Source: Prochlorococcus sp. AG-402-P18
GTDB taxonomy: Bacteria > Cyanobacteriota > Cyanobacteriia > PCC-6307 > Cyanobiaceae
DNA length: 64,000 bases
Assembly: GCA_003216275.1 (NCBI GenBank)
Contig: QCJC01000005.1
Span: 62,001-126,000 of the forward strand
Reading direction: 5' to 3'
Made by a program: the position numbers and the translations under genes. The notes beneath the pieces were generated by a model. It was given only the letters and a program-made list of their open reading frames with translations. It ran no database searches and was not told the DNA's origin. Shown here piece after piece: positions 22,645 to 35,572 of the stretch. Numbering within the stretch: the stretch's first letter is position 1; every line of letters starts with the position of its first letter.

Positions 22645-22877
22645 ATTACTAATTACTTATTTTATTCATTTTATAAGATCTCTCATAGTGCAAATCCAAT
22701 CTGTTTGCCTCCAATTCGATAATTAATCACGAGCTCAGATCTAGATTGATAATAATTTTTGAAGAAACCTCAACAGGTTGGGAGTGTATTGTGTATCATC
22801 GTATGACGTTCAGCTCAATTTGAGTCGCAGTTAGATTCAAGCCATGGAACGGGGACTTGAACAATGAAATCACTTCA

Positions 22878-23018
22878 ATGGCTGAGCTAACTTACAGAGG
22901 ACTCAAGTACACTCAAAATAAATCCGCCAAGGGGTCACAAGATGTGCACTTGCAATATTGTGGTCATGAAATTATGAGTAAAAGAATCCATGAAGCAATG
23001 AAAGCTGAGATGGGTTAG
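22878..23018 (+). CDS. DUF4278-like 46-residue protein
   Basis: Begins MAELTYRGLKYTQNKSA, matching the YRGxxY opening of the small cyanobacterial DUF4278 family, and contains a single Cys-Gly-His (YCGHE). Function unknown. The upstream ATG at 22864 stops after seven codons, so 22878 is the start. Confidence 0.55.
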   Translation: MAELTYRGLKYTQNKSAKGSQDVHLQYCGHEIMSKRIHEAMKAEMG

Positions 23019-23193: not shown

Positions 23194-23391
23194 ATGCAAT
23201 ATGAGCCAGGAACAATCGATTGTCATGTCTTTTTAGAATGCAAAGAGCAAATAGAGAAGATGCTACTGAGATTACACAAAGTAGAAAATACTGAGCATAT
23301 TTGTGGCCAACTTCAATCTATCTATCAACAAATAGAAGGTATGCACGAATTGAAAAAAGTTAAGCGGAAAAAAATTCTTTCTAATCAATAA
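23194..23391 (+). CDS. 65-residue hypothetical protein
   Basis: Soluble, helical, with Cys at residues about 10, 16 and 37 (TIDCHVFLECKEQIEKML ... TEHICGQLQ) and a basic tail. The pattern slightly recalls small metal-sensor or coiled-coil proteins, but I cannot assign a family. The stop codon lies inside the perfect 42-base palindrome at 23385-23426. Confidence 0.55.
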   Translation: MQYEPGTIDCHVFLECKEQIEKMLLRLHKVENTEHICGQLQSIYQQIEGMHELKKVKRKKILSNQ

Positions 23392-23426: not shown

Positions 23427-23490
23427 TAGATTTTTAATTATGTATCAATTAAGTCTTAACTTGTTCAACTAAATTAACTATAACTGTTAT

Positions 23491-23560
23491 ATCAGAAAAC
23501 CCGTTCCAAAGTTTTCTGTAGGGAGGTCAGCACAACTGGGAAGGGTTTTGACCTCCCTCC
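23491..23560. ncRNA. candidate structured RNA with two alternative folds
   Basis: In an AT-rich gap, a GC-richer block holds hairpin 1 (CAGAAAAC 23493-23500 with GTTTTCTG 23511-23518) and hairpin 2 (AGGGAGGTCA 23520-23529 with TGACCTCCCT 23549-23558). A competing pairing, AAAACCC-TTCC (about 23497-23508) with GGAA-GGGTTTT (about 23539-23549), would disrupt both. There is no reading frame. Strand and transcript ends cannot be set from sequence. Confidence 0.45.
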
Positions 23561-23599
23561 CCAATCTTAAATTATAGATTGTTTACATTAAAAAATTTT

Positions 23600-23824
23600 C
23601 TAATTAAGTCCTATTTGCAAAGTTCCCCAAAGATCAAAAGCTCCAAATAAAAAAGCTATAAAAACCAAGTCCCATGCCTTCTGCTTTATAGCCCACGGTG
23701 CAAAAAAGACCTCACCAATCCCATGAAGAGCTGCTCCTACTCCTAAATGATCTAAAACCAAAAGACCATGAGATATTAGAAATAATCCGCTAGCAAAATA
23801 TCTAAAAAGTGTATCGTAAGTTAT
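23600..23824 (-). pseudogene. small membrane protein gene lacking a normal start codon
   Basis: The frame encodes a coherent 74-residue hydrophobic protein (TYDTLFRYFASGLFLISHG ... GIGEVFFAPWAIKQK ... LFGAFDLWGTLQIGLN) with two or three membrane segments. No ATG, GTG or TTG exists before the conserved-looking part; the codon in the expected place is ATA at 23822-23824, with an in-frame stop a few codons upstream near a 9-A run. Either a decayed start, use of a rare start, a sequencing error, or translation from an internal TTG giving a shorter protein. Confidence 0.5.
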
Positions 23825-23828
23825 GAGT

Positions 23829-23939
23829 TTAATTTTTTTTTATGTTCGAAAATGTTATAGCTGTTGCAGGTATAGATTTGAAAGTTTTAACCATTGCATT
23901 AACCAAAAGTTTTTTATCTTTAATGCTTGATTTAGCCAT
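23829..23939 (-). CDS. 36-residue hypothetical protein
   Basis: Reads MAKSSIKDKKLLVNAMVKTF, then SIPATAITFSNIKKN; a basic small protein ending in the 9-A run. It sits just upstream of the membrane frame at 23600-23824 on the same strand. Weak support: ATG and composition only. It could be the displaced N-terminus of that gene after a frameshift, although its content does not look membrane-like. Confidence 0.35.
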   Translation of the reverse strand: MAKSSIKDKKLLVNAMVKTFKSIPATAITFSNIKKN

Positions 23940-33862: not shown

Positions 33863-35572
33863 ATGCCTTTCAAAATTTCACGCCAAGCTTATGCCGAAAC
33901 TTATGGTCCGACGAAAGGGGATCGCGTTAGGCTTGCAGATACAGACTTAATCCTCGAAGTTGAACAAGATCATACGCACTATGGAGACGAGGTTAAATTT
34001 GGAGGAGGTAAAGTTATTCGTGATGGTATGGGACAATCACAAAAAAGTAGAGACAATGGAGTTGTAGATACAGTCATTACCAATGCACTAATCCTTGACT
34101 GGTGGGGAATTGTAAAAGCTGATATTGGTATAAAAGATGGCAAGATTGCAGGTATTGGAAAAGCTGGAAATCCAGATACTCAACAAGGAGTCAATATTAT
34201 TATTGGCGCAAGTACAGAAGCAATAGCTGGAGAGGGACATATTATTACTGCAGGAGCTATTGATAGTCATATTCATTTTATTTGCCCTCAGCAAATTGAA
34301 ACTGCATTAGCTAGTGGGGTTACGACAATGCTTGGAGGAGGCACTGGTCCAGCAACCGGTACCAATGCAACAACATGTACTCCTGGAGCATTTCACATCT
34401 CAAGAATGCTTCAATCTGCAGACGCTTTTCCAATTAACTTAGGTTTCTTTGGGAAAGGAAATGCGACAAATAAAGCAGCACTTGAAGAACAAGTTAGAGC
34501 AGGTGCATGTGGCTTAAAACTTCATGAAGACTGGGGAACGACGCCGGCCTGCATTGATTCATGCCTAAGTGTTGCAGATCAATTCGATATACAAGTTTGT
34601 ATTCATACGGATACTTTAAATGAAGCTGGTTTTGTCGAAGATACAATTCGAGCAATAAAAGGAAGAACAATTCATACCTTCCATACTGAAGGTGCCGGAG
34701 GAGGCCATGCACCTGACATTATTAAAATTTGTGGGGAATCTAATGTTATTCCAAGCAGTACAAATCCAACTAGACCTTTTACTCTAAATACTCTTGAAGA
34801 ACATTTAGATATGTTGATGGTTTGCCATCACTTGGATCCTAAGATCCCCGAGGATGTTGCATTTGCCGAATCAAGAATACGTCGTGAAACTATTGCAGCT
34901 GAAGACATCCTCCATGACTTAGGAGCCTTTTCTATTATCGCTAGTGATTCACAAGCCATGGGAAGAGTGGGAGAGGTAATTAGTCGAACTTTTCAAACTG
35001 CTCATAAAATGAAAGTCCAAAGAGGAGCCTTACCAGAGGACAATGAAAGAAATGATAATTATCGCCTCAAAAGATATATCTCAAAAGTGACTATAAATCC
35101 CGCTATAGCCCATGGAATCAGTAGTCATGTTGGCTCAGTAGAGGTTGGCAAGCTTGCTGACTTAGTCCTTTGGAAACCAGGTTTTTTTGGAATAAAACCA
35201 GACATAGTAGTCAAGGGAGGTTCTATCGCATGGGCTCAAATGGGAGATGCCAACGCTTCCATACCTACTCCTCAACCGGTACATGGACGACCAATGTTCT
35301 CCTCCTTCGGTAAGTCTATCAATCCTAGTTCTCTAACTTTCTTAAGTGAGTCAGCAATAAAAGCAGGTATACCAGAAAAGCTTAATTTAAGCAAATCTTA
35401 TGCTGCCATAACAAATACAAGAGAAATATCTAAACAATCAATGAAACTCAATGTTGCAATGCCGAAAATAGAGGTTGACCCTCAGACTTATGAAGTTTTT
35501 GCTAATGGAGAACTCTTAACTTGTGAGCCCGCCGAATCATTACCTCTTGCTCAGAGATATCTATTACTTTGA
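33863..35572 (+). CDS. ureC: urease alpha (catalytic) subunit
   Basis: Hydrolyses urea to ammonia and carbamate at a dinickel centre. The 569 residues keep the nickel ligands: the HxH of DSHIHF, the Lys that becomes carbamylated (Lys219, GLKLHEDWG), [22 protein letters not shown] and the active-site flap MVCHHLD. Full length, no missing catalytic residues. The product feeds glutamine synthetase and Fd-GOGAT. Confidence 0.98.

What the first reader, a model, noticed from the sequence alone, without database searches (positions are those of the whole stretch)
23491..23560. Structured RNA candidate with mutually exclusive folds
Two stable hairpins compete with an 11-bp bulged pairing between AAAACCC-TTCC and GGAA-GGGTTTT in a GC-rich island within AT-rich non-coding DNA. 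This looks like a riboregulator or a pseudoknotted small RNA.
Basis: partly seen in the sequence, partly recalled or inferred. Interest (0 to 1): 0.6.

Follow-up and report, generated by a model that had tools for sequence, protein, structure and literature searches.

The report
Small RNA likely targeting glutamine riboswitches
The stretch is a conserved small-RNA gene of the ocean cyanobacterium Prochlorococcus whose exposed loop exactly matches the working core of the cell's glutamine-sensing RNA switches, so it probably shuts those switches down when nitrogen is scarce.

Summary
In detail: two stable hairpins at 23491-23560 in a GC-rich island. The 11-bp alternative helix is about 11 kcal/mol worse, so the folds are not realistic rivals; its core pairs loop 1 with loop 2 and can coexist with both hairpins (kissing). 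The element is more conserved than its flanks in 35 of 41 genomes of the genus, with a conserved promoter-like block ending at its 5' end: almost certainly a small-RNA gene of about 72 nt. Relatives in high-light Prochlorococcus keep the loop CCGUUCCA on other stems, with compensatory changes; most carry a perfect NtcA box near -41.5. The loop (CCCGUUCCA) is a perfect 9-nt complement of UGGAACGGG, the pseudoknot-forming loop of glutamine-II riboswitches, one of which lies about 640 nt upstream. In one high-light genome the only other sense sites genome-wide are two glutamine-II riboswitches. Proposed mechanism: a nitrogen-stress small RNA kisses the riboswitch loop, blocks the glutamine-bound ON fold and represses DUF4278 genes. 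The sRNA is well supported; target and direction are inferred. No Rfam family matches. It may be one of the NATL2A RNAs Yfr106-108, whose sequences I could not read.

The parts
23491..23562 (+). small-RNA gene (about 72 nt; ends approximate), 'type A' of the family
   Evidence: 35 of 41 genus genomes hold it at 87-98% DNA identity; pairwise column identity 0.95-0.99 inside against 0.58-0.81 just downstream; model R1 finds one copy per genome
23442..23455 (+). GTATCAATTAAGTC, conserved site at the place of the NtcA box of the relatives (centre about -42); imperfect NtcA match (GTA-N8-GTC)
   Evidence: identity 0.94-0.97; box position in all family types 50-54 nt before the loop
23456..23484 (+). 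promoter-like TTAACT - 17 nt - TATAAC
   Evidence: sequence and conservation; not picked up by the simple sigma-70 scan
23493..23518 (+). stem-loop 1: stem CAGAAAAC/GUUUUCUG, loop CCGUUCCAAA
   Evidence: same loop on other stems in relatives
23500..23508 (+). seed CCCGUUCCA, perfect complement of the glutamine-II riboswitch loop
23520..23558 (+). stem-loop 2 (10-bp stem, 19-nt loop), possible terminator hairpin without a U-run in most strains
23538..23545 (+). GGGAAGGG in loop 2, complementary to loop 1: internal look-alike of the target (self-kissing decoy), only in this lineage
   Evidence: absent from high-light relatives
22804..22861 (+). glutamine-II riboswitch (RF01704), proposed target; complementary site UGGAACGGG at 22845-22853
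   Evidence: 66.6 bits, E 3.2e-16; 9-nt complement
22878..23018 (+). 46-aa DUF4278-like protein MAELTYRGLKY..., gene under the riboswitch
   Evidence: PF14105 E 5e-4, below the curated cut-off for this copy; a 33-aa relative under another riboswitch scores 1.5e-9

Best explanation
The element is a trans-acting small RNA of the LLI-type/high-light Prochlorococcus clade, transcribed from its own promoter from about 23491. Its first hairpin presents the loop CCGUUCCA(AA). That loop pairs, loop to loop, with the P2 loop UGGAACGGG of glutamine-II riboswitches, several of which exist in each genome and one of which lies 640 nt upstream. In the riboswitch this same segment must pair with the 5' CGUUC strand to form the pseudoknot that holds glutamine and turns the gene ON. 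The small RNA outcompetes that strand (9 pairs against 5) and covers the region just upstream of the start codon, so it should keep the DUF4278 genes OFF. In the high-light relatives the promoter has a perfect NtcA box at the class II position, so the RNA should be made in nitrogen starvation, when glutamine is low: a coherent double lock. In this lineage loop 2 carries GGGAAGGG, a look-alike of the target that can hold the seed until a real target displaces it. Shown here by sequence: conservation, promoter block, hairpin family with compensatory changes, complementarity, NtcA boxes in relatives. Inferred: transcription, binding, direction of regulation, role of the decoy.
For: Conserved block with sharp edges, 23437-23560. 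One copy per genome in the genus. Same loop on stem types A-E; types A, C, D, E are 8/8 paired with both-sided changes at 5 of 8 pair positions. The loop pattern is confined to three Prochlorococcus genus groups apart from two odd single hits; the reversed control gives about 6 hits in 400 genomes. Perfect NtcA box GTA-N8-TAC in 26 of 28 distinct high-light type B sequences at near-constant distance while N8 varies, and in types D and E. Loop and riboswitch: 9 contiguous Watson-Crick pairs, -17.4 kcal/mol against -6.8 for the riboswitch's own strand; only 0.09% of shuffled loops reach 9 pairs. Of 12752 72-nt pieces of the window six have a GC-rich 9-nt complement to the riboswitch, the number expected from pieces overlapping the sRNA itself. 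Genome-wide TGGAACGGG sites: G367 two riboswitches plus the sRNA's own antisense strand and nothing else; G133 and G154 two riboswitches plus one other; LLI genomes two riboswitches among 4-7. The riboswitch is an ON switch whose pseudoknot is formed by exactly this segment (PMC6698751; PMC6316151), and its genes go down in N starvation (PMC2864571). NsiR4, with an NtcA box at -41.5 and a glutamine-synthetase inhibitor mRNA as target, is a precedent (PMC6316151).
Against: No transcript evidence was available. The window's own copy has only an imperfect NtcA site (GTA-N8-GTC), and its conserved upstream block did not reveal a regulon. The GGAACGGG of the riboswitch is conserved for ligand binding, so it cannot co-vary with the sRNA. 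Other sites with the 9-mer exist in LLI genomes, and a UUUGGAACGG site inside the ribosomal protein L9 gene recurs in three of nine genomes. Kissing energies are not modelled exactly. Riboswitches also occur in clades without the sRNA, and some genus genomes (G022, 96% complete) lack the sRNA but have riboswitches. One genome lacks the G of the seed (L017) and one has a changed base next to it (G012).
Confidence: 0.55

Rival explanations
1. A trans-acting small RNA whose seed CCGUUCC has other mRNA targets; the match to the glutamine-II riboswitch is coincidental.
For: Conservation, promoter and hairpin evidence hold without any particular target. LLI genomes have 2-5 other TGGAACGGG sites. 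A UUUGGAACGG site inside the ribosomal protein L9 coding region recurs in three of nine genomes, high-light and LLI.
Against: In G367 there is no other perfect 9-nt sense site in the genome. Shuffled loops reach the match in 0.09% of cases. The nitrogen link (NtcA boxes) points to the same pathway.
Confidence: 0.25
2. The RNA is the partner rather than the regulator: riboswitch mRNAs act as sponges for the small RNA, or the RNA descends from a glutamine-II aptamer (loop 1 resembles the 5' CGUUC strand, loop 2 resembles GGAACGGG).
For: Both strands of the riboswitch pseudoknot have look-alikes in loop 1 and loop 2 of this lineage. Loop-loop contact at -9.2 kcal/mol.
Against: Rfam does not score it as glutamine-II even at E 10. 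High-light relatives lack the GGGAAGGG half altogether. Copies B-E keep only the seed hairpin.
Confidence: 0.1
3. A bidirectional terminator between the upstream 65-aa ORF and the convergent minus-strand membrane-protein gene, with no regulatory role.
For: It lies between convergent genes; both strands fold well.
Against: No U-run, no terminator call. Loops are as conserved as stems (0.985-0.987), the promoter block is conserved, and relatives occur in unrelated gene neighbourhoods.
Confidence: 0.05
4. A protein-binding hairpin: the invariant loop is recognised by an RNA-binding protein rather than by another RNA.
For: An invariant loop motif on variable stems also fits a protein site.
Against: No candidate protein; the 9-nt perfect complement in a nitrogen switch would be unexplained.
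Confidence: 0.05

Closest known systems
NsiR4 (NtcA-activated sRNA of other cyanobacteria; PMC6316151)
   Same: NtcA box near -41.5 (here in the relatives) and a target linked to glutamine-synthetase control; its target gifA encodes the inhibitor IF7, while DUF4278 resembles the N-terminus of IF17.
   Different: NsiR4 is absent from alpha-cyanobacteria (same paper). Here the target would be a riboswitch aptamer shared by several mRNAs, and the RNA has a different sequence and structure.
Prochlorococcus Yfr sRNAs, especially NATL2A Yfr106-108 (PMC7368042) and MED4 Yfr28
   Same: Short, clade-specific intergenic sRNAs of the same organisms; Yfr28 is 72 nt and induced by nitrogen starvation.
   Different: Yfr28 lies by ftsZ/ftsQ in the high-light clade. 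The sequences of Yfr106-108 are in supplements I could not read, so identity with one of them is open. The Yfr103 family is 290-328 nt and multi-copy in Synechococcus CC9605 (PMC5069720), hence different.
OmrA/OmrB on btuB mRNA of E. coli (PMC11162775)
   Same: An sRNA and a riboswitch act on one mRNA.
   Different: In btuB one mRNA is involved and the two act by different pathways. Here the pairing site is the conserved aptamer loop itself, so one sRNA could reach every member of the riboswitch class.
Glutamine-II (downstream-peptide) riboswitch RF01704
   Same: The sRNA seed imitates and extends its 5' pseudoknot strand; one lies 640 nt upstream.
   Different: The element does not match the family and lacks its layout.

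Membership tests
bacterial trans-acting small RNA | independent intergenic transcription unit | tested here: inconclusive
   conserved TTAACT-17-TATAAC and upstream site ending at the element; no expression data
bacterial trans-acting small RNA | conserved structured RNA | tested here: met
   both-sided changes at 5 of 8 pair positions of hairpin 1 across family types; within the genus only one-sided changes
bacterial trans-acting small RNA | conserved unpaired seed with complement in candidate target mRNAs | tested here: met
   invariant loop, 9-nt complement in glutamine-II leaders; binding itself not testable
bacterial trans-acting small RNA | Rho-independent terminator (usual, not universal) | tested here: not met
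   hairpin without U-run in most strains; high-light type B has GAGGTCTT...AAGACCTC-TTT
NtcA-activated RNA (NsiR4-like control) | GTA-N8-TAC about -41.5 | tested here: inconclusive
   perfect in 26/28 high-light type B sequences and in types D, E; GTA-N8-GTC in the window's own copy
Glutamine-II riboswitch | match to RF01704 | tested here: not met
any Rfam family | score above gathering threshold | tested here: not met
Yfr106-108 of NATL2A | identical sequence/location | not testable with these tools
   main text gives no coordinates

The most novel reading that the evidence does not exclude
Prochlorococcus uses a family of nitrogen-controlled small RNAs that bind a riboswitch class in trans at its ligand-binding pseudoknot loop, so a single RNA overrides every glutamine-II riboswitch in the cell; in the LLI lineage the RNA also carries its own decoy of the target loop.
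Probability: 0.5. Interest if true: 0.85.

Novelty: new variant of a known kind. Interest (0 to 1): 0.7.

Why it matters
Nitrogen control in marine picocyanobacteria is an open question: they lack full-length homologues of the known glutamine-synthetase inhibitors and lack NsiR4, yet keep NtcA and several glutamine-II riboswitches of unclear purpose (PMC6316151). A small RNA that targets the aptamer itself would link the transcriptional (NtcA) and metabolite (glutamine) sensors. It would also be, as far as I know and could find, an unreported way for a small RNA to address a whole riboswitch class through its conserved core. It is testable with reporter fusions in laboratory strains.

Tried and rejected
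Competing 11-bp fold: 11 kcal/mol too weak. Known RNA family: no Rfam match above chance. Phage origin: no similar phage record. Simple terminator: no U-run. Yfr103: wrong length. Yfr19 as the high-light type C RNA: its listed homologues include MIT9301 and MIT9215, but the two genomes I take for these strains from their lengths have no type C copy, so not adopted. Full 10-nt complement UUUGGAACGG as target signature: the sites lie inside coding regions; only one (ribosomal protein L9) recurs, in three of nine genomes. Regulon of the conserved upstream block in LLI: no more matches than the reversed control. Sequences from g32 and g46 that matched the pattern do not fold as the family, and the g47 model hit has another loop.

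Full report
What is there. The window lies in a low-GC Prochlorococcus genome (genus group g1; G002, a 1,842,899-base member, looks like NATL2A from its length, which I judge from memory). At 23491-23562 on the plus strand there are two hairpins with MFE -27.7 kcal/mol, z about -3, in a GC island. Its inner six pairs join loop 1 (CCGUUCC) with loop 2 (GGAAGG) and fit both hairpins, so the sensible structure is a two-hairpin RNA with a possible loop-loop contact.

Is it a gene? A DNA search found the element in 35 of 41 genomes of the genus with strong E-values. Column identity is 0.95-0.99 inside it, 0.89 in the 60 bases before it, 0.74 further upstream and 0.66 downstream; the minus-strand membrane-protein gene next to it scores 0.94. 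The upstream block holds TTAACT-17-TATAAC, which places the 5' end at about 23491, and a conserved GTATCAATTAAGTC centred about 42 bases before it. Within the genus, stem changes are all one-sided and mostly compatible. A covariance model finds one copy per genome. Rfam has nothing.

Relatives. The model and pattern searches in 400 family genomes revealed the same loop on other stems, only in the high-light genus g18, in g28 and in the window's genus (the last with about 6 control hits, and two odd single hits elsewhere). Type B lies downstream of pstB and a 48-aa ORF, type C near other genes. Types D and E are present in up to three copies per genome, some before a 45-aa ORF, so they might be leaders rather than free sRNAs. 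The loop always starts with CCGUUCCA. Types A, C, D and E have 8 of 8 paired stems that differ by compensatory changes at five positions, e.g. GAGUUAAC/GUUGACUC against GAGUGAAC/GUUUACUC. Hairpin 2 and the loop-loop contact have no such support, and the GGGAAGGG half is missing in the high-light types.

Control. In type B, 26 of 28 distinct sequences have GTA-N8-TAC at a nearly fixed distance (centre 44 nt before the first base of the stem in 24 of them), with six different N8. Types D and E have the same box, and type C has GTT-N8-TAC. The distance fits the -41.5 position of NtcA-activated promoters, as described for NsiR4 (PMC6316151). The window's copy has GTA-N8-GTC in that place: conserved, but not a canonical NtcA box.

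Target. A search for the loop's complement near start codons in three genomes hit, among a handful of sites, UGGAACGGGGACUUGAACAAUG just upstream of the sRNA. That is the P2 loop of the glutamine-II riboswitch at window 22804-22861. Sixteen of 16 tested genomes have such riboswitches, 4-8 matches in LLI members. The sRNA segment 23500-23508 CCCGUUCCA pairs perfectly with 22845-22853, at -17.4 kcal/mol against -6.8 for the riboswitch's own 5' strand. Genome-wide, the nine letters TGGAACGGG occur in G367 only in two riboswitches and on the antisense strand of the sRNA; in G133 and G154 there is one further site each; LLI genomes have several further sites. Shuffled loops reach nine pairs in 0.09% of trials. 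Among 12752 72-nt pieces of the window, six have a GC-rich 9-nt complement to the riboswitch, the number expected from the pieces that overlap the sRNA itself. Another recurrent complement, inside the ribosomal protein L9 gene in three of nine genomes, is a lead that I did not follow.

Mechanism. The crystal structure shows that G36-G41 of the riboswitch, the segment covered by the sRNA, forms the pseudoknot and the glutamine pocket, and that the switch is ON with glutamine (PMC6698751). The downstream genes are small DUF4278 proteins, and genes under this motif fall in nitrogen starvation (PMC2864571). An RNA that takes this segment away should keep the gene OFF. With NtcA control this gives a coherent loop: low nitrogen means more sRNA and less glutamine, both OFF. 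The decoy GGGAAGGG in loop 2 of the window's lineage resembles the target loop and may tune the seed's availability; this is inference.

Status of the claim. A structured small-RNA gene: about 0.9. Glutamine-II leaders as main target: about 0.55. Repression in nitrogen starvation given that target: likely but untested. The RNA may already be in the NATL2A lists as one of Yfr106-108 (PMC7368042), in which case the RNA is known and only the target is new.

Noticed in passing
window 22804-23018 (+): Glutamine-II riboswitch with a 46-aa DUF4278-like ORF (and an overlapping 8-aa ORF from 22864).
   Followed up: yes
window 34018-34304 (-): Rfam match to 5_ureB_sRNA (RF02514, 100.8 bits), here in a Prochlorococcus genome that also holds urease-accessory and urea-transport-like genes nearby.
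   Followed up: no
L235 1501-1800, L248-L253, L255, L260, L261: Multi-copy NtcA-box leaders of high-light Prochlorococcus with the same seed hairpin, some followed by a 45-aa ORF MQKKIVKKYAELMHQAQQATGRKEA...; the second half of the leader has AAAACGGUCUU and CCGUUGAUUCC stretches of unknown role.
   Followed up: partly
L115, L127, L128 around position 1501: A UUUGGAACGG site complementary to the sRNA loop recurs inside the ribosomal protein L9 coding region in high-light and LLI genomes.
   Followed up: no
window 23604-23830 (-): Small membrane protein of about 74 aa (YDTLFRYFASGLFLISHGLLVLDHLG...), well conserved, no Pfam family above cut-off; not in the ORF list.
   Followed up: partly
window 23194-23391 (+): 65-aa ORF upstream of the sRNA; the high-light sRNA type B also follows a small charged 48-aa ORF.
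   Followed up: no
L065 1970-2070: A genome of genus g47 has CAGAAAAC...GUUUUCUG with a different loop followed by an AGGGUUUUCUG terminator-like repeat; relation unclear.
   Followed up: partly
G022, G011, G035 (L102-L104): Divergent members of the genus keep the downstream 170-aa gene but show no trace of the sRNA next to it.
   Followed up: partly
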